A DNA stretch of 24,504 nucleotides, taken from assembly GCA_021736615.1 (NCBI GenBank), contig JAIPFN010000098.1, positions 1 through 24,504 on the forward strand. Direction: 5' to 3'. Both the position numbers and the translations under genes were made by a program. Below, one piece after another: positions 1,985 to 22,641 of the stretch; position 1 is the stretch's first letter; the number at the start of each line of letters is the position of its first letter. This DNA comes from Phycisphaerae bacterium. GTDB lineage: Bacteria; Planctomycetota; Phycisphaerae; Sedimentisphaerales; Anaerohalosphaeraceae. The notes under the pieces were generated by a model that was given only the letters and a program-made list of their open reading frames with translations, had not been told where the DNA came from and ran no database searches.

Positions 1985-2270
1985 ATTATTACCTCTTTTC
2001 AGTCAATTCTGTGATCTTTGGAATAAAAAACCTTGTTATCCGAAGAACCTGTTAAATTGCCGGGAACAATTCAGCCGGGCAAACGTTATTTAAATATACT
2101 AATTTTCCCTGAGAATAAACGGTCCGTCAGGGATTAATAGCTTAGTATTATAGAAAGTTTGCTTTTAACTTGCAATAGCTGATTGCAAATACTAAAATTT
2201 TGTATTAAATATTTTTTTGCATGAAAATTGACGGGAAAATTTAAATTCGCCTTAAAAGAAAGATAAATTG
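1985..2270. other. Divergent intergenic region between the TPR-like and S55 genes
   Basis: 286 AT-rich bases with no credible gene. It must hold promoters for both directions. I see a rightward promoter candidate at 2170-2198 (listed separately) and an inverted repeat CCCTGA (2107-2112) / TCAGGG (2127-2132) with a 14-base loop. I see no convincing leftward -35/-10 pair. Confidence 0.6.
2170..2198 (+). promoter_or_regulatory. Sigma70-like promoter candidate for the S55 gene
   Basis: TTGCAA (2170-2175), a 17-base spacer, then TAAAAT (2193-2198), about 70 bases upstream of the S55 gene start. A second TTGCAA lies at 2183-2188 within the spacer. TTGCAA is its own reverse complement, so the two copies, 7 bases apart, form a symmetrical pair that could serve as an operator. 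This is read from sequence only. Confidence 0.45.
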
Positions 2271-4082
2271 ATGATTATGGGTTTCAAAACTTTGTCAAAT
2301 TTCAAATATTTCGGTTTTCTGGTTCTTTTTAGCTGCAGTTTCGCTTTTGGATTGGATAAAAGCAAATATATTTCAGTCGATGAGATCAAGCGGGGTATGG
2401 ATGCTTATTGCCTTACCGTTCTTGCCGGCAGCGAGCCGAAGAAGTACCCTCTTAAGGTCGTCAGTGTCGTCTATAATCAGAAGCCCGGGCACAATGGGAT
2501 TCTGGTGGTCGGTACCGATGAGGCTTTTAAGCATATTGGGCCCGTTCAGGGTTGCAGCGGTTCTCCGGTTTATATTGACGGCAGGATGGCCGGTGCTTTG
2601 TCGGCGGGCTGGAGTTTTTCGGTGGATCCGCTCTATATGGTTACCCCTATCGAAGAGATGCTTCGGGTTGGCAGCATTGTTGATTCGGCGGCGCTTGTGT
2701 CGAGTAAGAATGTCAATGCTTCGATTACAGATTTCAGTAAGCCGCTGGATCTGGCCGTTGCGAGAGAGCGTGTTTTTGGTTTGCTTTCGAAGTCTCAAAA
2801 TACTGCGGGCGGGTTTCAGGCTTTGCCGTGTCCTTTGGTGACTTCTTTTTCACCGGAGGTTTGTCAGTCGCTTGCCGGTGATCTTAAAGCGACGGGGCTT
2901 GTGCCACTGGCCGGCGGCGGGACCAGTAGCAGCGATGATTCCGGCGAGGAAGTTAAATATGTTCCGGGCGGTGTGCTTTCTATACCGCTGGTGAGCGGGG
3001 ATATTATGATGGCGGCTACGGGGACGGTTACCGAGGTTGTCGGGGATAAGGTTTACGGGTTCGGGCATAGTTTTCTCGGCCAGGGGGCAGTTGACCTTCC
3101 TATGGCTGCCGGAAAAGTGCATACTGTAGTTTCCAATATGAATTTTTCGTTTAAGCTCGCAACTGCCGGTAAGATCAGCGGTGCTTTCCGGGCGGATGAA
3201 TCGACCGCGATATTCGGCAAAGCCGGTGCGAAGGCGAAGCTGATTCCGCTGCGGATCAAGGTTAGTCGTTTTGACGCTGTCGAGGATAAGGTTTTTAATT
3301 GCAAGGTCGCGTATCACAGGCTTTATACGCCGATGCTTTTACAGGCGGTTCTTGCCGGGGCGGCTCAGATGCAGGGTGCTTTGCCTGCAGAACATACGGT
3401 CGAGTACAAGGCGGGGATCGGTGTTAAGGGATTCGATCCGATCAAATTTGAAAATGTTTCGTCGGGCAGTTCGATCAATGATGTTGTCGGCGAGGCCGTT
3501 GGTGCGGTTACTTTGCTGATGAACAATTCTTTCGGCGAGGTCGAGGTCAAATCGCTGGATTTTGAGATAAATATCAAGCCGGATGTCCTTATTTCTAATT
3601 TCTCATCGATTGAGCTTGATGATGTTAGGGTAAAGCCCGGCGGTAAGGTGGGCGCGACGGTTGTGCTGCAGTCGTACAGGTCGGAAAAGACGGTTCATCG
3701 TTTGAGCCTGGATATTCCTAAAGATATAAAGCCGGGCAAGTATAAGATCGTTGTTACGGGCGATAGCGGGTATGGCGGTTTTATCAGAAAGGCCGAGCCT
3801 TATAAGTTTGTCGCACGGGATGTCGATTCGCTGGTGGCGGCGATCAAATTTATTGTCTCGCAGAAACGCGACAGGCTGTATATGCTGCTGCAGTTGCCGC
3901 CTGACGGTGTTGCTATCGAAGGCAGCGAACTTGCCGGTCTGCCGGATTCAAAAACAGTGCTGCTGACAAACTCGAAGAGAACGATTTCTACTTTGCCCCT
4001 GGGTGACTGGATTGAAGATGGTAAGGTGATACCGTCGATTGTTCCGGGCGGTAAGGTTATGGATATTACGGTTGAGAAGTGA
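2271..4082 (+). CDS. SpoIVB-type S55 peptidase domain protein, exported
   Basis: 603 residues from the ATG at 2271; a TTG at 2268 and an ATG at 2277 are in-frame alternatives, and only a weak AAAGAAAG precedes them. The N-terminus is a signal peptide (hydrophobic core 'YFGFLVLFSCSFAFG'), so the protein is probably periplasmic or surface-located. A trypsin-clan style Ser motif 'GCSGSPVYIDG' begins at residue 94 (Ser96), followed by 'VTPIEEML'. A His motif 'YGFGHSFLGQG' follows around residue 266. These match the S55 domain of SpoIVB, a serine protease that activates sigma-K processing in Bacillus spores. Here the Ser motif comes before the His motif, the reverse of the SpoIVB order. The last ~250 residues resemble a beta-rich region of unknown role. 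There is no sporulation context. Substrate is unknown; a secretion or envelope quality-control role is a guess. Confidence 0.8.
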   Translation: MIMGFKTLSNFKYFGFLVLFSCSFAFGLDKSKYISVDEIKRGMDAYCLTVLAGSEPKKYPLKVVSVVYNQKPGHNGILVVGTDEAFKHIGPVQGCSGSPVYIDGRMAGALSAGWSFSVDPLYMVTPIEEMLRVGSIVDSAALVSSKNVNASITDFSKPLDLAVARERVFGLLSKSQNTAGGFQALPCPLVTSFSPEVCQSLAGDLKATGLVPLAGGGTSSSDDSGEEVKYVPGGVLSIPLVSGDIMMAATGTVTEVVGDKVYGFGHSFLGQGAVDLPMAAGKVHTVVSNMNFSFKLATAGKISGAFRADESTAIFGKAGAKAKLIPLRIKVSRFDAVEDKVFNCKVAYHRLYTPMLLQAVLAGAAQMQGALPAEHTVEYKAGIGVKGFDPIKFENVSSGSSINDVVGEAVGAVTLLMNNSFGEVEVKSLDFEINIKPDVLISNFSSIELDDVRVKPGGKVGATVVLQSYRSEKTVHRLSLDIPKDIKPGKYKIVVTGDSGYGGFIRKAEPYKFVARDVDSLVAAIKFIVSQKRDRLYMLLQLPPDGVAIEGSELAGLPDSKTVLLTNSKRTISTLPLGDWIEDGKVIPSIVPGGKVMDITVEK

Positions 4083-7652: not shown

Positions 7653-8972
7653 ATGAAAGTAGCTGTAGTTGGAGTTGGATATGTAGGTCTTGTCGCGGCG
7701 GCTTGTTTGGCTGACGGCGGTAACCATGTTGTTTGTGTCGATAACGATCCGAAGAAGATCGAGGATCTTAAAAACGGTATTATTCCGATCTATGAGCCTG
7801 GTCTTACTGAAGTTGTAAAACGAAACGAGGCGGGCGGGCGACTGACGTTTACGACCGACCTTAAAGAGGGAATTGACAATTCGCTGGTTATTTTTATTGG
7901 TGTCGGTACTCCCAGTGCCGCCGATGGTTCGGCTGATATTTCGGCGGTGCTGAAAGTTGCCGAGCAGATCGCCGATGTCATGGACAGCTACAGGATCATT
8001 GTAACCAAGAGCACCGTTCCGGTGGGCACACATAAAAAGGTGAGCGAAATAATTTCTTCACGTACGGAAGTTCCGTTTGACTATGTAAGCAATCCGGAGT
8101 TCCTTAAAGAAGGTTCGGCGGTCGAAGATTTTATGAAGCCGGATCGTGTGATAATCGGCACGGTGAACCCGGCAGTGATGGAGATTATGAAGCAGCTTTA
8201 CGCTCCGTTTATGCGGAAGAGAAGCAGGTTGATAACCATGGACCCGGCGAGCGCGGAGATGGCCAAGTATGCGGCTAACACGATGCTGGCGACGAGAATA
8301 TCTTTTATGAACGAGCTTAGCGCCTTATGCGATAAGTTCGGTGCGGACATCGAAAATGTTCGTTCGGGGATCGGAAGCGATTCGAGGATCGGTAACGCGT
8401 TTCTGTTTGCCGGTCTAGGTTACGGTGGGAGCTGTTTCCCGAAAGATGTGAAAGCACTTATCCATATGGGTAAAGAGCAGGGGATGGACATGACCATCGC
8501 CGCGTCGGTTCAGCAGGCCAACTATGACCAGCATGAAAGGTTCGCTAATAAGGTTTGCGACTATTATAAAGACGCCGGCAAGGAGATCAAACTTGCGGTT
8601 TGGGGTCTGGCATTTAAGGCCAGGACCGACGATATTCGCGAGTCGCCGGCGATACGATGCGTTCAGCGTTTTCTCGAAGCGGGGATGAAGGTCAAGGCAT
8701 TCGACCCGGAAGCTATGGAAAACACCAGGGCCGAGATCGGCGATTGTATAGAGATGGGGCAAAATGCCTACGACATTCTCGACGGTGCCGACGCGCTTGT
8801 GATATTGACCGACTGGCAGGAGTTCAGGACGCCGGACTTTGAAGATATCAAATCAAAACTCAATTGTCCGCTGATTTTTGACGGAAGAAACCTATACGAT
8901 CCGGGTTATGTTGCAAAGCAGGGGATCGAGTATTACTGCATCGGCCGGCAGAAGGTTGAGAGCAAGTCGTAA
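7653..8972 (+). CDS. ugd: UDP-glucose 6-dehydrogenase
   Basis: 439 residues, a normal length. It oxidises UDP-glucose twice with NAD+ to UDP-glucuronate in the cytoplasm. The N-terminal Rossmann motif is 'GVGYVGLVAA' (7-16) with Asp30/Asp32 for NAD. 'GVGTPSAADGSAD' (83-95) and 'TKSTVPVGT' (118-126) follow, and the catalytic motif 'GYGGSCFPKDVKAL' (256-269) contains the catalytic Cys261. 'EMAKYAANT' supplies the conserved Lys205. AAGGG (7640-7644) lies 8 bases before the ATG. It opens the uronate half of the locus, with GalU and UDP-glucuronate 4-epimerase downstream, so the pathway Glc-1-P to UDP-Glc to UDP-GlcA to UDP-GalA is complete here. Confidence 0.97.
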   Translation: MKVAVVGVGYVGLVAAACLADGGNHVVCVDNDPKKIEDLKNGIIPIYEPGLTEVVKRNEAGGRLTFTTDLKEGIDNSLVIFIGVGTPSAADGSADISAVLKVAEQIADVMDSYRIIVTKSTVPVGTHKKVSEIISSRTEVPFDYVSNPEFLKEGSAVEDFMKPDRVIIGTVNPAVMEIMKQLYAPFMRKRSRLITMDPASAEMAKYAANTMLATRISFMNELSALCDKFGADIENVRSGIGSDSRIGNAFLFAGLGYGGSCFPKDVKALIHMGKEQGMDMTIAASVQQANYDQHERFANKVCDYYKDAGKEIKLAVWGLAFKARTDDIRESPAIRCVQRFLEAGMKVKAFDPEAMENTRAEIGDCIEMGQNAYDILDGADALVILTDWQEFRTPDFEDIKSKLNCPLIFDGRNLYDPGYVAKQGIEYYCIGRQKVESKS

Positions 8973-8998: not shown

Positions 8999-10273
8999 AT
9001 GAGAATTAAAGTAGTAATTATGTGTGCTGTGGTTGCCCTTGTTAATTTCTACATTGTTACTGTTTTGGCAATGGGTAATACAAACTGGCCTGATTTCCGT
9101 GGTCCAGGTGCCAACGGTATTGCCGAGGTTTCCAGTGTGCCTTTAGTTTGGAGTGAGACGGAGAATGTAAAGTGGAAGACGGCTATTCACGATGAAGGTC
9201 ATTCCTCACCTGTTGTGTGGGGAGATCAGATATGGTTAACGACGGCTGGCAAGAATGGTCACAAATTCTACGCTGTTTGTGTTGACATCAACACCGGGCG
9301 AATCATTCATGATCTTTTGGTTTTCGAGGTGGATAAACCGGATCGTATCAATGGTAAGAACACGTTTGCTACCTGTTCACCGGTTATTGAGGCCGGACGC
9401 GTTTATGTTCATTTTGGTACGTATGGAACGGCTTGTCTGGATACCGTTACGGGCAGAACGGTCTGGTCGAGGCAAGACTTAAACTGCAAGCACATACAAG
9501 GCCCGGGGGCATCTCCGATAATATACGGAGACCTGCTTATCTGTCACATGGACGGATACGATACCCGGTATGTTGCTGCCCTGAACAAGAAAACCGGCGA
9601 CACGGTCTGGAAGACATATCGCTCTAATGATATCAAAAGCAAAGGAAAGCTTTATCAGAAAGCACACAACACTCCCTTAATAGTAAAAGTTGACGGCCGC
9701 GATCAGATGATAAGCAGTAACTCAATGGCTTGCATGTCATATGACCCGCTTACCGGGAGTGAACTCTGGAAAGTTATCCACAAGGTTGACGGTACGGTAA
9801 TGCGGCCTGTGTTTGCCGACGGTGTGGTTTATATAAGTGCCGGGGATCAACCGGATAAGTGTTTGTGGGCTGTGCGGGCCGATGGACAGGGCGACGTAAC
9901 TGATACAAATGTTATATGGAAGTGTGAGGATGGGCCGTTTGTTTCTTCGCCTATAGTAAAAGACGGTTTGCTCTATATGACTACTGATAAGGGTTTGGTT
10001 TCCTGCGTGGATGTCAAAACCGGCGAGCGGATTTGGAAACAGCAGCTGGTGAAAGGCACCTACTGGTCCTCGGCGGTTTTCGCGGATGGGCGATTGTATT
10101 TTAATAATGACAGAGGCGATACTACTGTTATTTCCGCAGGTCGAACACCCAAAATCCTTGGAGTTAATAAACTTGATGACGGTATGTATGCTTCGCCGGC
10201 AGTTATTGAGGGCAGTTTAATACAGCGTACAACAACACACCTGTATTGCCTTGGCAAGCGAGAAAAGAAATAA
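8999..10273 (+). CDS. Exported PQQ-like beta-propeller repeat protein
   Basis: 424 residues. An N-terminal hydrophobic segment (about 4-24, ending 'VLAMG') is a signal peptide or anchor. The mature protein opens with 'NWPDFRGPGANG', a signature I associate with planctomycete PQQ-repeat proteins, then runs of blades with 'W'-containing repeat ends such as 'HSSPVVWGDQIWLTTA', 'TGRTVW', 'TGDTVW', 'TGSELW', 'TGERIW'. These repeats match the BamB/PQQ-binding-like eight-bladed propeller. There is no evident quinoprotein active site, so it is probably a scaffold or binding protein, not a dehydrogenase. It lies between UDP-glucose dehydrogenase and the GHMP kinase with short gaps (26 and 36 bases), so it looks cotranscribed. 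Its role in glycan export or anchoring is a guess. Confidence 0.88.
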   Translation: MRIKVVIMCAVVALVNFYIVTVLAMGNTNWPDFRGPGANGIAEVSSVPLVWSETENVKWKTAIHDEGHSSPVVWGDQIWLTTAGKNGHKFYAVCVDINTGRIIHDLLVFEVDKPDRINGKNTFATCSPVIEAGRVYVHFGTYGTACLDTVTGRTVWSRQDLNCKHIQGPGASPIIYGDLLICHMDGYDTRYVAALNKKTGDTVWKTYRSNDIKSKGKLYQKAHNTPLIVKVDGRDQMISSNSMACMSYDPLTGSELWKVIHKVDGTVMRPVFADGVVYISAGDQPDKCLWAVRADGQGDVTDTNVIWKCEDGPFVSSPIVKDGLLYMTTDKGLVSCVDVKTGERIWKQQLVKGTYWSSAVFADGRLYFNNDRGDTTVISAGRTPKILGVNKLDDGMYASPAVIEGSLIQRTTTHLYCLGKREKK

Positions 10274-10309: not shown

Positions 10310-11308
10310 ATGATTATTCGTCAGAAAGCATATCCCAGGGTTGGTTTGATCGGTAACCCTTCGGACGGTTACTTTGGTAAGACCATTTCGTTTACGTTCG
10401 GTAATTTTTGTTCGGAGGTTGTTCTTTTTGAATCGCCGGAACTTGAAATTGACTCCAGCGAAAAAGACGAGTCATGTTTCGAGAGTATTGGCGCCCTTGT
10501 TAAGGATGTCAGGCTCCACGGTTATTATGGCGGGATTCGGCTGCTTAAGGCAACGGTCAAACGCTTTTACGATTATTGCGATGAAAATCAGATCGAACTT
10601 CACGATAAGAATTTTACGATTCGTTACAGTTCGGACATTCCGCATGGCCTTGGCCTTGCCGGTTCCAGTGCGATCATCACGGCATGTCTGCGGGCGCTGA
10701 TGGCTTTCTATGGCGTGAGTATTCCGAAATTTATACAGGCCAATCTGATTCTTTCGGCGGAGACCGAAGAACTGTATATAATGGCCGGTCTTCAGGATCG
10801 TGTCGTTCAGGTTTACCAGGGACTTGTCTATATGGACTTTAACGAAGAGTTTATGTCTTCGAGAGGTTACGGGCAGTACGACAATCTCGACGTTAAACTG
10901 CTTCCAAAGTTGTACGTCGCCTACACAGCCGATCTTGGCGAGCCGACTGAAGTGTTCCATAACAACATTCGCGCTCGCTTTGACTGCGGCGAAAAAGCGG
11001 TGGTCAGTGCAATGAAATACTGGGCTTCTCTGACCGATAAGTTTCGCAAGTGTCTTGAAAACGGCGAGCCTGAAAATTGTGCCGCTATTATAGACGCAAA
11101 CTTCGACCGCAGGTCAAAACTATACAAAATGAGCAGCGATAACCTGCTGATGGTAGAGACGGCAAGGCAGGCCGGAGCAAGTGCCAAGTTCACCGGCTCG
11201 GGCGGTGCGATAGTAGGGACATATAAGGATCAGAAAATGTTTAACTCCCTGAAAGCCAAAATGGCTAAGATTGGGATCAAGGTGATCAAGCCTAAGATAG
11301 TTTGTTGA
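10310..11308 (+). CDS. GHMP kinase, glucuronokinase-like
   Basis: 332 residues. All GHMP motifs are present: 'RVGLIGNPSDGYFGKT' at 10-25, the ATP loop 'PHGLGLAGSSA' at 111-121, and 'KFTGSGGAIVG' at 293-303. 'NPSDGYFGKTIS' and 'AGLQDRVVQVYQGLVYMDF' (159-177) strongly resemble plant glucuronokinase, which makes glucuronate-1-phosphate from free D-glucuronate. That assignment rests on my memory of the plant sequences; heptose or other sugar kinases of the GHMP family are alternatives. The next gene is GalU, and Ugd and UDP-glucuronate epimerase are close by, so a salvage route glucuronate to GlcA-1-P to UDP-GlcA is suggested by context. The ribosome-binding site is weak (GAAAG). Confidence 0.85.
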   Translation: MIIRQKAYPRVGLIGNPSDGYFGKTISFTFGNFCSEVVLFESPELEIDSSEKDESCFESIGALVKDVRLHGYYGGIRLLKATVKRFYDYCDENQIELHDKNFTIRYSSDIPHGLGLAGSSAIITACLRALMAFYGVSIPKFIQANLILSAETEELYIMAGLQDRVVQVYQGLVYMDFNEEFMSSRGYGQYDNLDVKLLPKLYVAYTADLGEPTEVFHNNIRARFDCGEKAVVSAMKYWASLTDKFRKCLENGEPENCAAIIDANFDRRSKLYKMSSDNLLMVETARQAGASAKFTGSGGAIVGTYKDQKMFNSLKAKMAKIGIKVIKPKIVC

Positions 11309-11406
11309 GGCAGGCAGCGTGCAGCGGAGAACGGGCAGCGCTGTGTTTAGAAGTTTTACCGATGGCGTAGACGTAATATTGTTTTGATATTGAAATTTGA
11401 GCTAAC
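11309..11406. other. 98-base gap before galU
   Basis: No gene. It begins with a GCAG-rich stretch (11309-11342) and then becomes AT-rich. I find no confident promoter or terminator, so the kinase and galU are probably read together. Confidence 0.35.
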
Positions 11407-12282
11407 ATGATAAAAAAAGCGGTTATTCCGGCGGCGGGATTTGGGACGCGTTTTTTGCCGGCGACAAAATCACAACCTAAAGAGATGCTTCCTATTGTCG
11501 ACACTCCTGTTATTCAGTATGTTGTCGAAGAAGCGGCGGCGGCGGGGCTTACAGATATCTTGATGGTTATCGGTAAGGGTAAGCGGGCTATCGAGGAGCA
11601 TTTCGACAGGAGCTTTCAGCTTGAGAGCCAACTTGCCGGTAAAGGCAAAGAAGCCGAGCTTAAACTTGTAAAAGATATTTCCGAACTTGCCGATATCCAC
11701 TTCGTCTGGCAGAAGGAGATGAAAGGGCTTGGAGACGCGATCTATTGCGGTAGGCACCATGTAAACGACGAGGCTTTTGCGGTGTTGCTTGGCGATACGG
11801 TTATTGATTCGAAGGTGCCGGCTGTTAAGCAGCTTGTAGATGTTTTTAATGATCATGGAAAATCGGTTGTACTGCTGGAACGTGTTGACCCTTCCAGAGT
11901 AAGTTCTTACGGTGTGATCGATGGTAACGAAGAAACAGATCGGCTTTACAGTGTAAATGATTTTGTTGAAAAGCCTCCGGTTGACGAAGCACCGTCGAAT
12001 CTTGTTATCGCAAGCAGATATATTTTTACGCCGGAGATATTCGACTATCTAAGCAGAACCAAACCGGGTAAAGGCGGCGAGATACAGATCACTGACGCGA
12101 TGCGATTGATGGTTAAAGAGCATCGGATGTACGGTCTTATACTTGATGGCAGACGTTGTGACATTGGAAACAAAGAAGGTTTCGTAAAAACGAATGTTGA
12201 GTTTGCTTTAAAGCGTGATGATATGTCTGCGGATATGAAAAAGTTTATAATGAATATGTCGTCTAAAATAAGCAATAAGTGA
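11407..12282 (+). CDS. galU: UTP-glucose-1-phosphate uridylyltransferase
   Basis: 291 residues, the normal GalU length. It makes UDP-glucose from UTP and glucose-1-phosphate. The nucleotide-binding signature 'AAGFGTRFLPATKSQPKEML' is at 8-27, with 'VLLGDTVIDS' (the Asp of the metal site) and 'FVEKPP' downstream and 'GEIQITDAM' near 218. It supplies substrate to Ugd, located upstream in the same locus. Because plant UDP-sugar pyrophosphorylases also use GlcA-1-P, this enzyme is the candidate partner of the glucuronokinase-like gene just before it, but GalU enzymes are usually specific for glucose-1-phosphate. It is 14 bases upstream of the epimerase gene. Confidence 0.95.
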   Translation: MIKKAVIPAAGFGTRFLPATKSQPKEMLPIVDTPVIQYVVEEAAAAGLTDILMVIGKGKRAIEEHFDRSFQLESQLAGKGKEAELKLVKDISELADIHFVWQKEMKGLGDAIYCGRHHVNDEAFAVLLGDTVIDSKVPAVKQLVDVFNDHGKSVVLLERVDPSRVSSYGVIDGNEETDRLYSVNDFVEKPPVDEAPSNLVIASRYIFTPEIFDYLSRTKPGKGGEIQITDAMRLMVKEHRMYGLILDGRRCDIGNKEGFVKTNVEFALKRDDMSADMKKFIMNMSSKISNK

Positions 12283-12296
12283 AAGGCTGAGTTAAA

Positions 12297-13349
12297 ATGA
12301 AAATATTGGTTACAGGTACGGCGGGGTTTATTGGTTCTTTTCTTGCTGAGCGTTTGATCGCTCGCGGTGATGAGGTTGTTGGACTTGACAGCATCAATGA
12401 TTATTATGATGTCAACGTCAAGTACGGCAGGCTTGAGCGTGCCGGTATTGAAAAATATGAGCTGGATTATAATCGAATGATCCAGAGCATTATACATCCA
12501 AACTATAAGTTCATTCAGCTCAAGCTTGAGGATTCGGTTAACATCGACGCTTTGTTTAAGGCTGAAAAGTTTGACAAGGTTTGCAATCTTGCCGCTCAGG
12601 CCGGCGTTCGATACAGTCTTATCAATCCGCAGGCTTATGTCAATGCAAACATTGTCGGTTTTGTGAACATCCTCGAAGCGTGCAGGCATAACGATATCGA
12701 ACACCTTGCATACGCGTCCAGTTCCAGTGTTTACGGGCTTAACGAGTCGATGCCGTTTTCGACGAGCGATAATATCGACCATCCCGTAAGTCTTTATGCG
12801 GCGAGCAAAAAGTCAAACGAGCTTATGGCTCATACGTACAGCCATCTGTTTGGCTTGCCGACGACTGGCCTTAGGTTCTTTACGGTATACGGGCCGTGGG
12901 GCAGGCCGGATATGGCCCTTTTCCTGTTTACCAAGGCGATACTGGAAGGCAAACCGATAGACGTCTTTAATCACGGCAAGATGAAGCGTGACTTTACTTA
13001 TGTTGACGATATTGTTGAAGGGGTTATCCGTGTGATAGACAACCCGCCGAATGGCAATCCCGATTGGTCCGGTGCGAAACCCGATCCGTCATGTTCGAAG
13101 GCGCCGTACAAAGTTTATAATATTGGTAACAGTTCACCGGTATTGCTGATGGATTTTATTGCGGCGATAGAAAATGCAATCGGCAAAAAAGCGGAGAAGA
13201 ATATGATGCCGCTTCAGCCGGGCGATGTGCCGGCGACTTGGGCGGACGTGACGGACCTGGTCGAAGACCTGGGGTATAAACCGGATACGTCCATTGAAGA
13301 GGGAGTAGGGAAATTCGTTAAATGGTACAGAGAATTTTATAATATATAG
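12297..13349 (+). CDS. UDP-glucuronate 4-epimerase (SDR family)
   Basis: 350 residues. An extended short-chain dehydrogenase: 'GTAGFIGS' (7-14) binds NAD, the catalytic pair is Tyr167 and Lys171 in 'YAASK', and Ser141-144 precede 'VYG'. '[16 protein letters not shown]' and '[20 protein letters not shown]' are hallmarks of the GAE/CapI UDP-glucuronate 4-epimerase subgroup, as is the Asn/Pro-rich insertion before '[18 protein letters not shown]'. It would interconvert UDP-GlcA and UDP-GalA. AAAGG is 10 bases before the ATG. UDP-GlcNAcA or UDP-glucose epimerase specificity is less likely given Ugd in the same locus. Confidence 0.92.
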
Positions 13350-13378: not shown

Positions 13379-13407
13379 TTAAAAACAATCTTTAGAGGAA
13401 TATGATT

Positions 13408-14715
13408 ATGGCAAAGAAAACAGCAGAAGAAAAGTCTCACTATGTTGGTATTATCGGGTTAGGTTATGTCGGTTTGCCGCTTGCCCGCGAGTTTTGTCTT
13501 GGCGGTGCTACGGTTCTCGGCTTTGATGTTAATACCGCGATGGTCAATAAGGTCAACCGCGGCATAAGTCCGATCAAGCATATCCCGAGCACTCAGCTTA
13601 CCGATATGATAAGTACGGGGCGTTTTCGGGCAACCGACAAGATGAATCAGATCAGTAAGCCGGACACACTTCTTATCTGCGTGCCGACGCCGCTTACCGA
13701 AAACCGCGAGCCGGATATGTTCTATGTTGAAGAGACATGCAAGACGATTGCCAAATATCTGCGCAAGGGTCAGCTCGTTGTTCTGGAAAGCACGACGTAT
13801 CCGGGGACAACCCGTGAACTGATGCTTCCTATACTTGAGACTTCCGGTCTTAAGGCGGGTAAGGATTTTTACATGGCGTACTCGCCGGACCGTGAGGATC
13901 CGGGCAACAAGGATTTCCGGACTTCGACGATTCCAAAGGTTGTCGGCGGTCTTGACAAACCAAGTCTCGACATGGCCCTGGACGTGTACAGTTGTGCTAT
14001 CGAGACACTCGTGACCGTCGGTTCCTGTGAGATCGCAGTAGCGGCGAAGATTATCGAAAATACTTACCGTTGCGTAAATATCGCGATGGTCAACGAGCTG
14101 AAACAATTGTTCGACCGGATGGGCATCGATGTGTGGGAGGTTATCAGGGCGGCTAGTACGAAACCGTTTGGCTTTAAGGCGTTCTACCCCGGGCCGGGTC
14201 TCGGCGGACACTGCATTCCTATCGATCCGTTCTATCTTACGTGGAAAGCTCGTCAGTATGGGATGGCGACTCGGTTTATCGAACTTGCCGGTGAGATCAA
14301 TACCGATATGCCGCATTACGTTGTTACGAGGATCATGGATGCTCTTAACGATAAAAAGAAAAGTCTTAAGGGGTCCAAGGTTCTTGTGCTTGGCCTGGCT
14401 TACAAAAAGGATATTGACGACGTGCGCGAATCGCCGTCGCTGGAGCTTATCGAACTACTGAAAGAAAAGGGCGCCAAGGTTGACTACAACGATCCGTATA
14501 TTCCGAAGACGCATAAGCAGCGTGATTACGACTTGCAGATGAAGAGCAAGGACCTAACCGCGAAAATGCTGAAGACTTACGACGCGGTTCTGATAGCTAC
14601 CGATCACAGCGATTACGATTATAAATGGATCGTTGAAAATTCACAATTGGTGGTAGACACCAGGAACGCAACAGCAGATGTCAAAAAGGGCCGCAAGAAA
14701 ATCGTAAAGGCATAA
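13408..14715 (+). CDS. wbpA: UDP-N-acetylglucosamine 6-dehydrogenase (WbpA-type)
   Basis: 435 residues from the ATG at 13408. AGAGGA (13394-13399) is 8 bases upstream of it but only 2 from the ATG at 13402, so 13408 is preferred. It is a UDP-sugar 6-dehydrogenase: 'GIIGLGYVGLPLA' (14-26), 'PTPLTENREPD' (93-103), 'ESTTYPGTT' (127-135), and the catalytic 'GLGGHCIPIDPFYLTWKAR' with Cys269. The 'GLGGHCIPIDPFYL' form is that of WbpA/VipA/WecC-like enzymes that act on N-acetylhexosamines, unlike the Ugd upstream ('GYGGSCFPKD'). UDP-GlcNAc to UDP-GlcNAcA is therefore the predicted reaction, supported by WbpB, D, E and I downstream. It is separated from them by about 4.2 kb. Confidence 0.93.
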   Translation: MAKKTAEEKSHYVGIIGLGYVGLPLAREFCLGGATVLGFDVNTAMVNKVNRGISPIKHIPSTQLTDMISTGRFRATDKMNQISKPDTLLICVPTPLTENREPDMFYVEETCKTIAKYLRKGQLVVLESTTYPGTTRELMLPILETSGLKAGKDFYMAYSPDREDPGNKDFRTSTIPKVVGGLDKPSLDMALDVYSCAIETLVTVGSCEIAVAAKIIENTYRCVNIAMVNELKQLFDRMGIDVWEVIRAASTKPFGFKAFYPGPGLGGHCIPIDPFYLTWKARQYGMATRFIELAGEINTDMPHYVVTRIMDALNDKKKSLKGSKVLVLGLAYKKDIDDVRESPSLELIELLKEKGAKVDYNDPYIPKTHKQRDYDLQMKSKDLTAKMLKTYDAVLIATDHSDYDYKWIVENSQLVVDTRNATADVKKGRKKIVKA

Positions 14716-15388: not shown

Positions 15389-18300
15389 ATGTGGAACTAT
15401 CTGATCATTACAGCGTCTAACGACGAGCAGGCAGCGGGGTATCAGGCTCAGCTAGATTTGCGGGCCAGGCTCGGTCTTCTTGGCGATGTTGCCAATGTTC
15501 TGGTCGTCGCCGACCCAGGCGGCAAGCGCGTAGGCTCTGGAGGCAGTACGCTGTTTTGCCTTATGGAGGTATTGCGGCAGGAGATGAGCGAAGGCGCGGT
15601 TGATCTGAGCCGTATTCGGCAGGTGCTCGCCGGTCTGCGAATACTGATTATCCATGCAGGCGGCGATTCCAAACGACTTCCGGCCTACGGTCCCTGCGGC
15701 AAAATATTCGTTCCGGTTCCCGGCGAATCGGACAGTTGCCTTCCGCTGACACTTTTCGACCGTCAGCTTCCAACCTACCTTGCGCTTCCTGCGCCGCCGG
15801 ATAGTACCGGTCAGGTGGTAATAACCTCCGGTGATGTTATGCTGCGGTTTGATCCGGCTCGTGTGAAATTCGATAAGTGCGGACTTACCGGTCTGGGCTG
15901 TTATGCACCGCCGGCGCAAGCTGCCAATCATGGCGTATTTTGCGGTATTGACGGTAAAGGCCGGGTAAAAAAGTTTTTGCAGAAACCAACTTCCGACCAG
16001 CAAAAGGCTATGGGCGCAACCGATCATTACGGCCAGTCGATACTCGACATCGGCGTGATGAATTTCGATGCGGATACGGCTGTGCGTTTGCTGGAGATAT
16101 TCGGTCTTAGCGCAGGTGCAGGCGGCAGGCTTGAACTTTCCGGCGAGATGGGTCAGGCAGTTATGGATCGCGGTCTGGATTTTTATCGTGAAATATGCTG
16201 CGGGATGGGCAGCGAGGCGACTTCGTCTCATCATATTAAGATGTCACGGTCAAGCGGGTCGAAGTGGGACGACGTTTTGCTGGGCAGGCTTTTGCAGGGA
16301 CTTGGGCGTATAGATTTTAATCTTGAGCTGCTGCGTCATTGCGACTTTATCGATTTTGGAACGACCGCTAATATCATTCGCAGCGGGACAGCATTGATCC
16401 AGCAGGACAGGGGCGCATCGAAACTGAATTCCTGTCTGGATATAAATAACGACATTCACTCCGATGGACAGCTTACAGGTTCATGGTGGTGGGTTGAGGG
16501 TTGCCGTATCGGTTCGCCTGTGACGCTTGGCGGCGAAAATGTCGTAATCGGCGTCGATATCGATAAGCCCCTGGAACTTTCCGCCGGTGCCTGCCTTGAC
16601 GTTATCGCGGGCAATCTGCCGGAAGGCGGAGAAACATGGTTTGTGCGATGTTATGGAGTGGGCGACACTTTCAAAGATACGCTTAAGCAGAAAGCGACTT
16701 TCTGTAACATACCTGTGATGGAATGGCTCGATGCGGTCGGTACAGCCGCCGGTGAAGTCTGGGACAGTTCAATTGAAATAGATAAGAGGTCGCTCTGGGA
16801 CGGGCGTGTTTTTCCGGCGGTATCGTCGGCAGATAAATATTCCGACTGGCTCTGGATGTATGACCCGGCAAGTGCGACGAGTGAGCAGATAAAGAGATGG
16901 AAAGAGGCCCGGCGTTTCAGCGTTGCCGAAATTGCCCGGCTGACAGATCCGCAACTGTTCTTTAAGAACCGCCTTGCGATCCGCGCCGAGCAAATAAAAA
17001 ACTTCCTGCGAAATATTTTCCGCACAGCCAGCGAATTTTCCGCCGAAGAGCTTACGTGCATATTGACCGACGTCTTGAGCGTACCTGCAGAAAGAGCCGC
17101 ATGGATCGCCGCTCTTATTTCCGAAGCGAAATGGCATTACGATAACGGCAATGGTCTGGGCAAACTGGTTTTCCCGCGTATAATACATACGCTTGGTACG
17201 GTTCTTGAAAATGTCAACGAAGATACGACCGCCACTATGTCGGCTGCACTGGAGGGTCTGAGTGAAAATCTCAGCGATGCCGAAAACGACTGGCTTGATT
17301 CGCTGGGCCTGCATGTCAATTCCGGTATGACCGTTAAAGACTGGGCCGCAAAAGCACGAAGCATCGCGTTTGATTTCTTAGGCAAATCGATCATCTTCAG
17401 CGGCAGCAAAAAAGTAAGCCCGCCGGTCAGCAAACTTAGAAGCGATGAGATAGTCTGGGGACGCAGCCCAGTCAGGTTTGACACCGGCGGCGGCTGGACG
17501 GATACTCCGCCATACTCGCTGGAATACGGCGGATGTGTTGTCAATACAGCTATTGACTTGAACGGGCAGTCGCCATTGCAGGCATATTTGCGGGTTACCG
17601 ATGAGCCGGTTATTACGATCGGTTCGATTGACCTGGGCACACGGATCAAGATAACCGACCTTAAAGAACTGCTCGACTATAGCGAGCCAACCAGTAAATA
17701 CGGTCTGGTCAAGGCGGCACTTGCATTGTCAGGTTTTTCGCCGGAGATAGCCGACTGGCCGAAAGGCATCACCTTGAAGAAGATGCTAAATACGTTCGGC
17801 GGCGGAATAGAAATCACTACTCTGGCGGCGATTCCAAAGGGCAGCGGTCTGGGAACTTCGAGTATTCTCGGTGCCGTTATCGTAGCGGTGATTTATCGGG
17901 CGATGGGGCGACAGCTTACACCTACCGATCTGTTTAATAAGGTGCTTCAGTTGGAACAGGCACTGACAACCGGCGGCGGCTGGCAGGATCAGGTGGGCGG
18001 GGTTCTCGGAGGTGTCAAGATCGTATATGCCGATAGCGCACTTGTCCCCGATCCGCGGATTCATTATTTACCGTCCGATATTATGGACCCGGCGACTAAT
18101 GGCGGTTCAACCTTACTATATTATACCGGCATTACCCGCCTGGCCAAAAATATTCTCGAACAGGTTGTCGGTTCCTACCTCAATCGAAACCGCGGGTGCA
18201 TGGCAACTTTGACCAAGATCAAGGGCCTTACGGCAGAGGTTGCCGATACGCTGTCGCGTAAGGATATGCCGGCTTTTGGTCAGCTGGTCGACCGGGCCTG

Positions 18301-18553
18301 GCAACTGAATAAGCAGCTTGACCCGAATTCGACCAATGATGAGGTTGAAAAGCTGTTTGCACGTATAGAACCGCATGTTTATGGGGCCAAGCTTTTGGGT
18401 GCCGGCGGCGGCGGGTTTATGTTTATGGTCTGTAAGTCGCCTGAAGACGCCATGCGGATCCGGTCGATGCTGGATTCCGATCCACCAAACGAAAGAAGCA
18501 GATTTTTCGATTTTAACGTAAACAACCAGGGTTTGGTTGTGACGGTTTGTTAG
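15389..18553 (+). CDS. Bifunctional L-fucokinase / L-fucose-1-phosphate guanylyltransferase (Fkp-type)
   Basis: 1054 residues, comparable to plant FKGP and to Bacteroides Fkp (about 950). The N-terminal half is the fucose-pyrophosphorylase region: 'DPGGKRVGSGGSTL' at 42-55 and 'AGGDSKRLPAYGPCGKIF' near 94-111. The C-terminal half is a GHMP kinase: 'VRFDTGGGWTDTPPYS' near 693, the ATP loop 'PKGSGLGTSSILG' near 814 and 'KLLGAGGGGFMFM' near 999. Together they convert free L-fucose to L-fucose-1-phosphate and then GDP-L-fucose (a salvage route). All kinase motifs look intact. It is alone in the locus for GDP-fucose: no Gmd or WcaG is seen. D-arabinose is a known alternative substrate for Bacteroides Fkp. 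A small hairpin follows the stop. Confidence 0.93.
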   Translation: MWNYLIITASNDEQAAGYQAQLDLRARLGLLGDVANVLVVADPGGKRVGSGGSTLFCLMEVLRQEMSEGAVDLSRIRQVLAGLRILIIHAGGDSKRLPAYGPCGKIFVPVPGESDSCLPLTLFDRQLPTYLALPAPPDSTGQVVITSGDVMLRFDPARVKFDKCGLTGLGCYAPPAQAANHGVFCGIDGKGRVKKFLQKPTSDQQKAMGATDHYGQSILDIGVMNFDADTAVRLLEIFGLSAGAGGRLELSGEMGQAVMDRGLDFYREICCGMGSEATSSHHIKMSRSSGSKWDDVLLGRLLQGLGRIDFNLELLRHCDFIDFGTTANIIRSGTALIQQDRGASKLNSCLDINNDIHSDGQLTGSWWWVEGCRIGSPVTLGGENVVIGVDIDKPLELSAGACLDVIAGNLPEGGETWFVRCYGVGDTFKDTLKQKATFCNIPVMEWLDAVGTAAGEVWDSSIEIDKRSLWDGRVFPAVSSADKYSDWLWMYDPASATSEQIKRWKEARRFSVAEIARLTDPQLFFKNRLAIRAEQIKNFLRNIFRTASEFSAEELTCILTDVLSVPAERAAWIAALISEAKWHYDNGNGLGKLVFPRIIHTLGTVLENVNEDTTATMSAALEGLSENLSDAENDWLDSLGLHVNSGMTVKDWAAKARSIAFDFLGKSIIFSGSKKVSPPVSKLRSDEIVWGRSPVRFDTGGGWTDTPPYSLEYGGCVVNTAIDLNGQSPLQAYLRVTDEPVITIGSIDLGTRIKITDLKELLDYSEPTSKYGLVKAALALSGFSPEIADWPKGITLKKMLNTFGGGIEITTLAAIPKGSGLGTSSILGAVIVAVIYRAMGRQLTPTDLFNKVLQLEQALTTGGGWQDQVGGVLGGVKIVYADSALVPDPRIHYLPSDIMDPATNGGSTLLYYTGITRLAKNILEQVVGSYLNRNRGCMATLTKIKGLTAEVADTLSRKDMPAFGQLVDRAWQLNKQLDPNSTNDEVEKLFARIEPHVYGAKLLGAGGGGFMFMVCKSPEDAMRIRSMLDSDPPNERSRFFDFNVNNQGLVVTVC

Positions 18554-18896: not shown

Positions 18897-18959
18897 CAGG
18901 CAGATATTGCTGAAATACAACATGAGTATTTGATTATTATAATAGAAAGGTCTGAGAAG

Positions 18960-19901
18960 ATGAAAAAATTTGCTCTAATCGGCGTTGGCGGATATATCGC
19001 CCCAAGACACTTGAGAGCAATAAGGGATTCTGGAAACACGCTAGTTGCCGCTCTGGATAAGAATGATTCGGTTGGCGTACTGGACAGTTACTTCCCGGAC
19101 TGCAGATTTTTCACGGAGTTTGAACGGTTTGACAGGCATATTGAAAAAATAAGGAGAAACGAAAATACTCGCATAGATTACGTGTCTGTTTGTTCGCCAA
19201 ACTATCTCCATGACTCTCATTGCAGATTTGGCTTAAGAATCGGTGCAGATGTGATTTGCGAAAAACCATTGGTTTTAAACCCGTGGAATGTAGATGCTCT
19301 TACTGAGATAGAAAAGGAGACAGGCGGTAAGATAAACTCGATTCTGCAACTTCGTCTCCATGCAGCTATTATAGCACTGAAAGAAAAGATAGATGCCGCC
19401 GACAAAAATAAGACCTTTGATATTGACCTGACTTATATTACGTCAAGGGGGCCATGGTATGATGTTTCGTGGAAAGGCGATATTCATAAGTCCGGTGGGA
19501 TAGCCAATAATATTGGCGTTCATTTTTTCGATATGCTGACTTGGATATTCGGTTCTGTCAAGCAGAATATAGTTCACGTGTCTGAGCCGAGCAAGGCGGC
19601 AGGATTCCTCGAACTTGCAAGAGGACGTGTCAGGTGGTTCCTTTCACTTGATCACAATGACCTTCCATTTAAGCCTGAACCAAATCAACCAAAAACCTAC
19701 CGGTCTATTACGGTCGATGGGCAAGAGGTTGAATTTTCGGAAGGCTTTACAGAACTGCATACGGATAGTTATAAGCATATATTGGCGGGCAATGGCTTTG
19801 GTCTTAAGGATGTAAAGCCATCAATAGAAATTGTATCAGAGATCAGAAAAATTCAGCCTGTTGGCCTAAAGGGCGAGTATCATCCGATGCTGGCAAAATG
19901 A
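18960..19901 (+). CDS. wbpB: Gfo/Idh/MocA oxidoreductase, WbpB-type UDP-GlcNAcA 3-dehydrogenase
   Basis: 313 residues from the ATG at 18960, chosen for GAAAGG (18945-18950) 9 bases upstream; a longer frame from 18930 adds a poor N-terminus. The Rossmann motif is 'FALIGVGGYIAPRH' (4-17), the Gfo/Idh/MocA lysine is in 'CEKP' (100-103, Lys102), and 'SGGIANNIGVHFFDML' (178-193) has the conserved His188. 'PNYLHDSHC' and 'ITSRGPWYDVSWKGD' are typical of the WbpB/WlbA group, which oxidises carbon 3 of UDP-GlcNAcA with bound NAD. The neighbours WbpD and WbpE carry out the next steps. It is preceded by the REP-like element. Confidence 0.93.
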   Translation: MKKFALIGVGGYIAPRHLRAIRDSGNTLVAALDKNDSVGVLDSYFPDCRFFTEFERFDRHIEKIRRNENTRIDYVSVCSPNYLHDSHCRFGLRIGADVICEKPLVLNPWNVDALTEIEKETGGKINSILQLRLHAAIIALKEKIDAADKNKTFDIDLTYITSRGPWYDVSWKGDIHKSGGIANNIGVHFFDMLTWIFGSVKQNIVHVSEPSKAAGFLELARGRVRWFLSLDHNDLPFKPEPNQPKTYRSITVDGQEVEFSEGFTELHTDSYKHILAGNGFGLKDVKPSIEIVSEIRKIQPVGLKGEYHPMLAK

Positions 19902-19931
19902 CATACCGCTAATTTTCAAGAGGTAGTAACC

Positions 19932-20588
19932 ATGGCAGATTATTTTGTTCACGAAACAGCTATAGTAGATGATGGAGCAGTCATTGGAGAAGGTACCAAA
20001 GTATGGCATTTCTCTCATATAATGTCAGGAGCAAACATAGGTCAAAGATGTATCTTCGGGCAAAATGTCTGTGTCTCTGGCGGAGTGACTATCGGTAATA
20101 ATGTTAAAGTTCAGAACAACGTTTCAATATACACCGGAGCGGTCATTGAAGACGATGTTTTTCTAGGTCCCAGTTGCGTGCTTACAAATGTTACAAACCC
20201 ACGCTCCCAGGTTGTCCGTCACAGCCTTTATGAAAAGACTGTTTTCAGAAGGGGCACAACGGTAGGTGCAAATGCTACGATAGTTTGCGGTATCGAACTC
20301 GGTCTTTACAGTTTCATTGCCGCAGGTTGCGTTATCGCAAAAGATGTACCGGACTATGCGCTTATGGCAGGTGTTCCCGCTCGTCAGATTGGCTGGATGA
20401 GCCGGCATGGTATTAAACTCCCCGCTCCCGATTCCGATGGTGTTATGCTTTGCCCGGAGAGCGGTTATCGCTATAAAGAGGTAGGGCCTGGCATTGTCAA
20501 ATGCCTGGACATTGACGAAGAGTCGCCGCTGCCGGAAGACAAATCCGTAGGCAAAACATATTACGATGATTTCAAGAAAGAAGACTAA
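19932..20588 (+). CDS. wbpD: UDP-GlcNAc3NA N-acetyltransferase (WbpD/WlbB-type)
   Basis: 218 residues. The N-terminal two thirds are left-handed beta-helix hexapeptide repeats ('IVDDGAVIGEGTKVWHFSHI', 'GANIGQRCIFG', 'VTIGNNVKVQNNVSIY', 'TTVGANATIVCG'), which form the acetyl-CoA trimer site. 'MAGVPARQIGWMSRHG' closes the fold. It acetylates the C-3 amino group of UDP-2-acetamido-3-amino-glucuronate. The tail carries a 'CPESGYRY' stretch and another Cys ('IVKCLD') that I would not expect in every family member. AAGAGGT lies 7 bases before the ATG. It is 30 bases after wbpB and 18 bases before wbpE. Confidence 0.94.
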   Translation: MADYFVHETAIVDDGAVIGEGTKVWHFSHIMSGANIGQRCIFGQNVCVSGGVTIGNNVKVQNNVSIYTGAVIEDDVFLGPSCVLTNVTNPRSQVVRHSLYEKTVFRRGTTVGANATIVCGIELGLYSFIAAGCVIAKDVPDYALMAGVPARQIGWMSRHGIKLPAPDSDGVMLCPESGYRYKEVGPGIVKCLDIDEESPLPEDKSVGKTYYDDFKKED

Positions 20589-20606
20589 TTTGTTAAAGGG
20601 AAATTT

Positions 20607-21707
20607 ATGAAAGTCCCATTATTAGATTTACAGGCTCAGTATTGCAGCATCGAAAATGAGGTAATGGCTGCGGTATCCGAGGTTCTCAAGTCACAGCAGT
20701 GCATCGGCGGACCAAAGGTCACCGAACTTGAAGAGAAAGTCGCCGCTGCTAGTAACTGCAAATATGCCGTAGGTGCATCCAGCGGTACCGATGCAATTCT
20801 AAATGTTCTTATGAGTCTGGACATTGGTCCGGGCGACGAAGTGATTACCACGCCTTTCACTTTTTTCGCGACAGTCGGATGTATCGCACGCACGGGTGCA
20901 ACGCCGGTGTTTGTAGACATTGACCCGGAAACGTATAATATTGACCCTTCTCTTATAAAGGGCAAGATAACCGATAAGACAAAGGCGATCATGCCTGTGC
21001 ATCTTTTTGGCCAGATGGCTGACATGAACCCGATCATGGAGATCGCAAAGAAACATGACCTTGCGGTTATCGAAGATTCTGCTCAGTCCATAACGAGTGA
21101 ATATAAAGGAAAAAAAGCAGGCAGTATTGGAACCGCCGGATGCTTTAGTTTTTTTCCAAGCAAGAATCTTGGCGGTGTTGGCGATGGCGGAATGATCGTT
21201 ACCAATGACGAACAATTCTATGAAAAGCTGGTGATAATGCGAAATCACGGCAGTAAACCGAAGTATTACCACAAACTCGTTGGCGGAAACTTCCGTCTTG
21301 ACCCGATCCAGGCCGCTGCTCTTTTAGTGAAACTTCCGCATCTTGACGACTGGTCAAAAGCTCGTCGCCAAAACGCCGAATACTATAACAGCAAATTTGC
21401 GGCGGCGGATATTAAAACTCCCTATATAAATCTCGATTGCGTTACCATCTACAATCAGTATGTAATAGGAACGGCAAATCGTGACGAACTAATGGCACAT
21501 CTAAAAGGAAATGATATTGGTTGCGAGATATATTATCCTGTGCCGATGCACATGCAGGAATGTTTCAGTTATCTTGGACATAAACAAGGTGATTTCCCGC
21601 ATGCCGAACAAGCAGCCAAACAAGTTCTGGCCCTGCCGGTTTACCCGGAGCTAACCGATGAAATGAAAGATTTTGTTGTCGAGAAGGTTTTGTCATTTTT
21701 GAAATGA
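20607..21707 (+). CDS. wbpE: DegT/DnrJ/EryC1/StrS aminotransferase, WbpE-type
   Basis: 366 residues, a normal length. A PLP-dependent sugar aminotransferase: the PLP lysine is Lys186 in 'FFPSKNLGGVGDGG' (182-195), the cofactor Asp157 is in 'VIEDSAQS', and 'GASSGTDA' (56-63) binds phosphate. WbpE transfers the amino group from glutamate to the C-3 keto group made by WbpB, giving UDP-2-acetamido-3-amino-glucuronate. AAAGGG is a good ribosome-binding site. The next gene starts 5 bases after its stop. The specific substrate is inferred from WbpB and WbpD being next to it. Confidence 0.94.
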   Translation: MKVPLLDLQAQYCSIENEVMAAVSEVLKSQQCIGGPKVTELEEKVAAASNCKYAVGASSGTDAILNVLMSLDIGPGDEVITTPFTFFATVGCIARTGATPVFVDIDPETYNIDPSLIKGKITDKTKAIMPVHLFGQMADMNPIMEIAKKHDLAVIEDSAQSITSEYKGKKAGSIGTAGCFSFFPSKNLGGVGDGGMIVTNDEQFYEKLVIMRNHGSKPKYYHKLVGGNFRLDPIQAAALLVKLPHLDDWSKARRQNAEYYNSKFAAADIKTPYINLDCVTIYNQYVIGTANRDELMAHLKGNDIGCEIYYPVPMHMQECFSYLGHKQGDFPHAEQAAKQVLALPVYPELTDEMKDFVVEKVLSFLK

Positions 21708-21711
21708 AACA

Positions 21712-22587: not shown

Positions 22588-22641
22588 CGCGAAATTAGTT
22601 TGTGTCTGCAAATTACTTATTACGCTGGCGTGGAGTAGTAT

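What the first reader, a model, noticed from the sequence alone, without database searches (positions are those of the whole stretch)
10310..12282. Glucuronokinase-like GHMP kinase beside GalU in a bacterial glycan locus
The kinase carries 'NPSDGYFGKT' and 'AGLQDRVVQVYQG' motifs I associate with plant glucuronokinase, and its neighbour is a uridylyltransferase. With Ugd and UDP-glucuronate epimerase close by, the locus may make UDP-glucuronate both from UDP-glucose and by salvage of free glucuronate. Bacterial use of this plant-style salvage route is, to my knowledge, little described.
Basis: partly seen in the sequence, partly recalled or inferred. Interest (0 to 1): 0.7.

Follow-up and report, generated by a model that had tools for sequence, protein, structure and literature searches.

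The report
Bacterial glucuronate salvage kinase with uridylyltransferase
An uncultured planctomycete bacterium carries a kinase of the same family as the plant enzyme that re-activates free glucuronic acid, and in its relatives this kinase mostly comes together with a particular GalU-type enzyme that probably finishes the job of making UDP-glucuronic acid.

Summary
ORF 10310-11308 (332 aa) is a GHMP kinase, 43% identical to Arabidopsis glucuronokinase over 306 aa. In trees it groups with plant glucuronokinases (91/88) and apart from 12 other GHMP kinases used as outgroup.

The neighbouring GalU is more than a chance neighbour. In 32 of 47 clade loci a GalU gene lies within 600 bp on the same strand, in either gene order, one of them on a Bacteroidota plasmid. 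Of 392 Planctomycetota genomes 27 have GalU, among them 18 of the 23 with this kinase. Of 25 kinase-free genomes sampled none has GalU and 23 have a UDPGP-family pyrophosphorylase. Kinase-linked GalUs fall in one subclade. A sister kinase clade is mostly followed by, or fused to, another nucleotidyltransferase.

Best reading: glucuronate + ATP gives glucuronate-1-P, which GalU turns into UDP-glucuronate. I found no paper characterising a bacterial glucuronokinase in the open library searched; database labels already use the name. A new variant of a known salvage pathway.

The parts
10310..11308 (+). Glucuronokinase-family GHMP kinase (predicted: D-glucuronate + ATP -> glucuronate-1-phosphate)
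   Evidence: 43% identity to Arabidopsis glucuronokinase P0122; tree with plant glucuronokinases; N16-P-S-D19, D163-R164, R268, R286 shared with plants; AlphaFold2 model mean pLDDT 91.4 with GHMP fold matches
11407..12282 (+). GalU-type uridylyltransferase of the kinase-linked subclade (predicted: glucuronate-1-P + UTP -> UDP-glucuronate)
   Evidence: TIGR01099 363 bits; GalU adjacent to the kinase in 32 of 47 clade loci; co-occurrence 18 of 23; GalU subclade
12297..13349 (+). NAD-dependent epimerase, probably UDP-glucuronate 4-epimerase; third member of the cluster in the closest relatives
   Evidence: Pfam Epimerase/GDP_Man_Dehyd; PDB 5u4q and 6zl6 matches; found near the kinase in 6 of the 46 loci compared
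7653..8972 (+). Ugd, UDP-glucose 6-dehydrogenase (TuaD-like): the ordinary de novo route to UDP-glucuronate
   Evidence: Pfam UDPG_MGDP_dh domains; NCBIfam TuaD 485.8 bits, below that model's cut-off of 700, and NDP-sugDHase subfamily above its cut-off; directly upstream of the kinase in L001

Best explanation
The 10310-11308 protein is a bacterial glucuronokinase and its GalU-type neighbour is its working partner. Free D-glucuronate is phosphorylated at C1 with ATP; the GalU-type enzyme then couples the glucuronate-1-phosphate to UTP, giving UDP-glucuronate, which the epimerase downstream can turn into UDP-galacturonate for glycan building. In this locus the pair sits beside Ugd, the usual route from UDP-glucose. 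Shown by comparison: family membership of the kinase, conserved linkage, genome co-occurrence, and a kinase-linked GalU subclade. Inferred: the substrate, the GalU reaction, the epimerase reaction and the fate of the product.
For: Identity of 43% over 306 aa to Arabidopsis glucuronokinase. Careful kinase tree: window clade, clade B and plants together at 100/100 against clade C, and window clade plus plants at 91/88. In the quick tree 12 other GHMP kinases, given as outgroup, part from the rest at SH-aLRT 88, and window clade, clade B and plants hold together at 99. R164 directly after D163, plus R268 and R286, are invariant in the window clade, plants and clade B; none of the six galactokinase-like, heptose-kinase-like and fucokinase comparison rows has Arg there. 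GalU lies on the same strand within 600 bp in 32 of 47 loci, in both orders; kinase and galU overlap by 4 nt (ATGA) in the closest relative L001; a Rufibacter plasmid has the same pair. Of 392 Planctomycetota genomes 27 have GalU (E <= 1e-60): 18 of the 23 kinase genomes against 9 of 369 others (one-sided Fisher 2.8e-20, not corrected for shared ancestry). In a hand-picked 25 against 25 comparison, 23 and 0. UDPGP-family proteins are present in 24 of 25 and 23 of 25, so GalU is not obviously needed for UDP-glucose. Kinase-linked GalUs, the Rufibacter one included, fall in one subclade (SH-aLRT 99) with the GalUs of three kinase genomes that lie on other contigs than the kinase. Clade B kinases are followed directly by another nucleotidyltransferase in 10 of 13 loci and fused to one in 1; 118 of the 120 listed hits of that fusion, itself included, carry both domains. 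Zebrafish has a glucuronokinase fused to a nucleotidyltransferase; it phosphorylated only glucuronate of nine sugars and gave a little UDP-glucuronate in a 70 h assay (PMC3938481, passages and section 25).
Against: No activity was measured. 11 of 47 loci show no GalU in the stretch held, 3 have it 1-2.4 kb away and 1 is cut by the contig end; some of the 47 loci are near-duplicates. 5 of 23 kinase genomes have no GalU at the cut-off, and 5 of 27 GalU genomes have neither the window-type nor the clade C kinase. Clade C kinases, also next to GalU, mostly lack R164 and R286 and have Gln at 268, so pairing with GalU does not prove a glucuronate substrate. Few GalU positions mark the linked group and none is a gained positive charge, so nothing in the sequence shows that GalU takes a carboxylate. 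One kinase-free genome (G161) also has a GalU of the linked subclade. That plants are sister to the window clade rather than to clade B is not firmly established (AU p 0.20). MIOX, the plant source of glucuronate, was found in 0 of 16 kinase genomes, but the control genomes were silent too.
Confidence: 0.7

Rival explanations
1. The kinase is a glucuronokinase, but GalU is only the ordinary UDP-glucose pyrophosphorylase; the two genes sit together because both serve the UDP-glucuronate pool, and glucuronate-1-P is uridylylated by another enzyme such as the UDPGP-family protein.
For: The window GalU passes the GalU equivalog model, and in 17 genomes chosen because the pair was known there the kinase neighbour is the only strong GalU, the next hits scoring about 150 bits or less. 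A UDPGP-family gene is present in 47 of 50 genomes; plant UDP-sugar pyrophosphorylase, which takes glucuronate-1-P, is recalled to be of that broad family.
Against: GalU tracks the kinase (18 of 23 against 9 of 369), whereas an Ugd hit is, if anything, commoner without the kinase (15 of 25 against 22 of 25). In 41 of the 42 loci compared no Ugd match lies in the stretch held (L001 is the exception; G481, not in that call, also has Ugd beside the kinase).
Confidence: 0.2
2. The kinase acts on another sugar or uronic acid (for example galacturonate or a neutral hexose), and GalU makes the matching UDP-sugar.
For: GHMP kinases differ in substrate within one fold (general knowledge); clade C shows GalU-paired kinases with different residues at key positions; identity to the plant enzyme is 43%.
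Against: The catalytic Asp, R164, R268, R286 and the NPSD stretch are the same as in plants. The animal relative used only glucuronate of nine sugars, galacturonate and glucose among those rejected (PMC3938481).
Confidence: 0.12
3. It is a D-glycero-D-manno-heptose kinase (HddA/WcbL type).
For: Nearest solved structures by sequence are heptose kinases, and the top two fold matches are WcbL.
Against: 42.9 bits against a cut-off of 600 in the HddA model; tree position; Arg instead of Gln after the catalytic Asp. The Arabidopsis glucuronokinase itself finds only the same two heptose kinases in the PDB copy at E <= 1e-5, so those matches only show that no closer structure is there.
Confidence: 0.02

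Closest known systems
Plant glucuronokinase (Arabidopsis GlcAK1 type, EC 2.7.1.43)
   Same: Same GHMP subfamily, 43% identity, same NPSD and QDRV motifs and same arginines at 164, 268 and 286.
   Different: In plants the next step is a broad UDP-sugar pyrophosphorylase (PMC3938481) and glucuronate comes from inositol through MIOX (recalled; mentions the myo-inositol route); here a GalU-type gene sits beside the kinase, and MIOX was not found in 16 kinase genomes with a silent control.
Animal bifunctional glucuronokinase/putative pyrophosphorylase (zebrafish DrGKUP, PMC3938481)
   Same: Kinase plus nucleotidyltransferase as one unit; homology to plant glucuronokinase.
   Different: One fused protein with the transferase at the N-terminus; a little UDP-glucuronate was seen only in a 70 h assay. 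The window has two genes and a GalU-model protein. That paper says bacterial and archaeal members of its pyrophosphorylase group are not fused; the bacterial fusion seen here has the kinase first. I compared no animal sequence.
Bacterial FKP (fucokinase/GDP-fucose pyrophosphorylase)
   Same: Same logic of salvage: GHMP kinase plus nucleotidyltransferase; a protein of this kind is encoded in this window at 15389-18553.
   Different: Its kinase part falls with the outgroup rows; GDP rather than UDP product (recalled); fused.
GalU, UTP-glucose-1-phosphate uridylyltransferase
   Same: The window GalU passes TIGR01099; the GalU-annotated plasmid hits H2, H4, H7 and H8 are 39-50% identical to it.
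   Different: Belongs to a subclade that goes with the kinase; GalU of any kind is in 27 of 392 genomes of the phylum.

Membership tests
Glucuronokinase | Sequence homology to plant glucuronokinase over most of the protein | tested here: met
   43% identity over 306 aa
Glucuronokinase | Phylogenetic grouping with glucuronokinases rather than other GHMP kinases | tested here: met
   with plants 91/88, with plants plus clade B 100/100; the root was set on the outgroup rows by me, and their own identities are my reading except the window fucokinase
Glucuronokinase | Conserved catalytic and family residues (R10, D19, D163, R164, R268, R286, GSGG 296-299) | tested here: met
   the functional role of each residue is inferred
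Glucuronokinase | Phosphorylates D-glucuronate at C1 specifically | not testable with these tools
   Needs an enzyme assay
GalU (UDP-glucose pyrophosphorylase) | Score above the TIGR01099 cut-off | tested here: met
   363 against 326.8 bits
GalU (UDP-glucose pyrophosphorylase) | Housekeeping presence independent of the kinase in the phylum (my criterion) | tested here: not met
   27 of 392 phylum genomes have it, 18 of them with the window-type kinase
UDP-glucuronate salvage pathway | UTP:glucuronate-1-P uridylyltransferase activity present | not testable with these tools
   Only linkage and co-occurrence
Heptose kinase HddA/WcbL | NCBIfam NF049969 cut-off 600 bits | tested here: not met
   42.9 bits
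Plant-style pathway with inositol oxygenase | MIOX gene in the genome | tested here: inconclusive
   0 of 16 kinase genomes of relatives, but the control genomes gave no signal either; the window's own genome is not held

The most novel reading that the evidence does not exclude
Many Planctomycetota, and at least one Bacteroidota plasmid, own a dedicated two-enzyme glucuronate salvage module whose 'GalU' is a distinct, misnamed glucuronate-1-P uridylyltransferase. In genomes without a window-type Ugd (10 of 25 kinase genomes sampled, one of them almost wholly on a single 6.36-Mb contig) it may be the only source of UDP-glucuronate. Fusions of a sister kinase to a second nucleotidyltransferase family suggest that the pairing arose more than once, as also in animals.
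Probability: 0.4. Interest if true: 0.7.

Novelty: new variant of a known kind. Interest (0 to 1): 0.58.

Why it matters
UDP-glucuronate is a central precursor of acidic polysaccharides, and bacteria are usually described as making it by oxidising UDP-glucose (general knowledge). A widespread bacterial salvage module would change how uronic-acid polysaccharide degraders are modelled, would show that some genes labelled GalU have another job, would give a prokaryotic background to the plant and animal glucuronokinases, and could supply enzymes for making UDP-glucuronate cheaply. The animal transferase domain is almost inactive in vitro (PMC3938481), so a bacterial pair could make the second step testable.

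Tried and rejected
Heptose, homoserine, mevalonate, galacto- and fucokinase identities were considered and rejected by tree and model scores. The idea that GalU is merely the housekeeping copy was tested by co-occurrence and weakened, not excluded. A search for GalU residues that would explain acceptance of a carboxylate gave only small changes (positions 39, 52, 202, 243, 253) and no new positive charge. The MIOX search was silent in all 16 genomes and in the controls. UxaC had a strong match in 9 of 25 kinase and 5 of 25 kinase-free genomes, any match in 14 and 8; no clear pattern. Promoter-like sites were 19 against 12.2 (sd 3.5) in shuffles and terminator-like 11 against 7.5 (sd 2.7); not used. 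No phage record of the INPHARED set matched. Single-sequence structure prediction failed (mean pLDDT 34.4). In one search kinase and GalU are the widely shared neighbours; two other recurrent sets (35 and 21 loci) look like shadow reading frames to me, unchecked. The NCBIfam scan did not name the two UDPGP-family proteins tried, so which sugar they use is unknown. Rows dropped: L065 (truncated) from the kinase trees; the P0241 kinase part (same as L034) from both trees; L066 and 30 of the 52 window-clade rows from the careful tree; L039 (short) and loci without a GalU hit from the GalU tree. The bands A, B, C were set by bit score.

Full report
What is there. The window has a run of genes on the + strand. 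Between Ugd (7653-8972) and a nucleotide-sugar epimerase (12297-13349) lie a PQQ-propeller protein (8999-10273), the kinase (10310-11308) and GalU (11407-12282). No whole genome is held for the window. The closest genome contig found is a Planctomycetota MAG (VRUI01000002.1, L001), whose kinase is 88% and GalU 94% identical and which has Ugd, kinase, GalU and epimerase in the same order, with no match to the propeller gene between Ugd and kinase. In L001 the kinase stop and the galU start overlap in ATGA; in the window they are 98 nt apart.

The kinase. Pfam sees only GHMP_kinases_N and no NCBIfam equivalog is reached. Against the Arabidopsis glucuronokinase it scores 43% identity over 306 aa. 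A source label 'glucuronokinase' from JGI stands on many of the 69-77% relatives listed, so the name is not new. The quick tree of 92 rows has 12 other GHMP kinases as outgroup, on which I rooted it: the window's own fucokinase domain and 11 from relatives' genomes which I read, from their sequences only, as galactokinases, homoserine, mevalonate and IspE-like kinases and two heptose-kinase-like proteins. They part from the rest at SH-aLRT 88; window clade, clade B and plants hold together at 99; several outgroup branches are long. The careful tree of 49 rows, without those outgroups, gives 91/88 for window clade plus plants and 100/100 for these plus clade B against clade C. Forcing plants with clade B is not rejected (AU p 0.20), so the order within the family is open.

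Residues. One search lists positions at least 95% conserved in 52 window-clade proteins and identical in 7 plants. Among them R164 follows the presumed catalytic base D163, where the comparison rows (three galactokinase-like; the fucokinase and two heptose-kinase-like) have Gln or Pro; R268 and R286 are likewise invariant in the window clade, plants and clade B, and no comparison row has Arg there, though one has Lys at 268. N16 stands where the galactokinase-like rows have D, G or E. That these residues hold the carboxylate is my inference. Clade C keeps the base but has mostly other residues at 164, Gln at 268 and mostly Leu at 286, which suggests another substrate. The AlphaFold2 model with 44 sequences is confident (mean pLDDT 91.4, pTM 0.90); the 50 best Foldseek matches shown are heptokinases, galactokinases, mevalonate and phosphomevalonate kinases and one unnamed Listeria protein, at 12-19% identity.

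Linkage. I fetched the surroundings of the kinase from the 392-genome phylum sample and the 198-genome class sample (fetched) and one Bacteroidota plasmid. Of 47 window-clade loci, 32 have GalU on the same strand within 600 bp, 1 has it cut by the contig end, 3 have it 1-2.4 kb away, 11 have none in the stretch held; four of the 11 are on contigs under 6 kb, and a few loci are near-duplicates. GalU is downstream in some and upstream in others. Of 13 clade B loci, 10 have another NTP_transferase directly downstream, 1 is fused to it and 2 have none (the profile used was built from four of these loci, and Pfam confirmed three of them). 6 of 6 clade C loci have GalU upstream, two of these cut by contig ends. 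The fused protein P0241 has 554 aa with the kinase first; of the 120 hits listed, itself included, 118 carry both domains by the precomputed Pfam columns (831 hits at E <= 0.001, the list favouring fusions by rank). All-against-all comparison of neighbours in 46 window-clade loci found the kinase in 46, GalU in 35 and the epimerase in 6, the window's own close kin.

Co-occurrence. GalU at E <= 1e-60 is in 27 of 392 Planctomycetota genomes; the window-type kinase (E <= 1e-80) in 23; both in 18 (one-sided Fisher 2.8e-20). Counting clade C kinases too, 22 of 29 kinase genomes have GalU and 5 of 363 others do; two of the seven misses (G032, G094) have a GalU piece cut by a contig end. Shared ancestry inflates these p-values; gene order changes and the Bacteroidota case argue against mere inheritance. 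In 25 kinase genomes chosen by me and 25 kinase-free ones, GalU is in 23 and 0, a UDPGP-family protein in 24 and 23, an Ugd match at E <= 1e-50 in 15 and 22 (counts; p 0.05). In each of 17 genomes looked at earlier, all chosen because the pair was known there, the best GalU was the kinase neighbour. The 10 kinase genomes without such an Ugd have only nucleotide-sugar dehydrogenases closer to the window's WbpA-like protein, in 14 of 15 loci; the fifteenth gave no match. An UDP-glucose dehydrogenase of that other type is not excluded.

GalU subclade. A tree of 53 GalUs puts the kinase-linked ones, including Rufibacter, together with GalUs from three kinase genomes where they lie on other contigs and one kinase-free genome (SH-aLRT 99, quick method), apart from E. 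coli, Monoglobus, Sphingomonas, Caballeronia, Sinorhizobium and four of the five GalUs of planctomycete genomes without window-type or clade C kinase (rooted on E. coli; one of the four on a long branch).

What is known. In zebrafish the kinase half of a fused protein phosphorylates glucuronate only, of nine sugars, and UDP-glucuronate was seen in small amount in a 70 h assay with both halves; that paper describes the fusion in eukaryotes only (PMC3938481; passages, which include the abstract in part, and section 25). Searches of the open PMC library for glucuronokinase (54 papers, 40 listed), with bacteria and GHMP kinase (4), glucuronic acid kinase (2), K16190 (2), glucuronic acid 1-phosphate with bacteria and salvage (0), glucuronate kinase (1), UDP-glucuronic acid with planctomycetes and glucuronate (0), GlcA-1-P with GalU (1), and fucokinase with UDP-glucuronic acid, salvage and bacteria (5) gave no paper, judged from listings, that characterises a bacterial glucuronokinase. 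A few listed papers are on microbial communities and hold the term once or twice; I did not open them. Subscription journals are mostly not held.

Verdict. The kinase belongs with the glucuronokinases by the sequence tests made here, and the partner GalU is tied to it by linkage, co-occurrence and phylogeny. The chemistry of both steps is still to be shown.

Noticed in passing
window 15389-18553: FKP-like bifunctional fucokinase/fucose-1-P guanylyltransferase of 1054 aa (626 bits against a cut-off of 721): a second salvage-type sugar activation enzyme in the same locus.
   Followed up: partly
window 13402-14715 and 18930-23748: WbpA-like dehydrogenase, Gfo/Idh oxidoreductase, hexapeptide acetyltransferase, DegT aminotransferase and WecB-type 2-epimerase look like a UDP-ManNAc(3NAc)A-type pathway (pathway recalled).
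   Followed up: no
L177 4001-5020 and L178 3755-4741: Two IMG/VR viral contigs encode glucuronokinase-like kinases (46% and 36% to the window) without a GalU match in the stretch held; L177 has RecA-like and QueC/D/E-like genes around it by my reading of the ORFs.
   Followed up: partly
P0347: A kinase-nucleotidyltransferase protein of the fungus Hyaloraphidium curvatum is 61% identical to the planctomycete fusion and its kinase part sits inside the bacterial fusion group in the trees: possible gene transfer or contamination.
   Followed up: partly
L038-L043: Clade C GHMP kinases directly behind GalU keep the catalytic Asp but mostly lack the family arginines; substrate unknown.
   Followed up: partly
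L067-L072: Clade B kinase plus NTP transferase is followed by a Gfo/Idh/MocA-type oxidoreductase in L067 (Pfam) and by what look like similar proteins in others (by eye).
   Followed up: partly
window 8999-10273: PQQ-propeller gene between Ugd and the kinase, with no match at that place in L001.
   Followed up: no
window 2268-4082: Protein with a SpoIVB peptidase S55 match (32 bits, cut-off 25).
   Followed up: no
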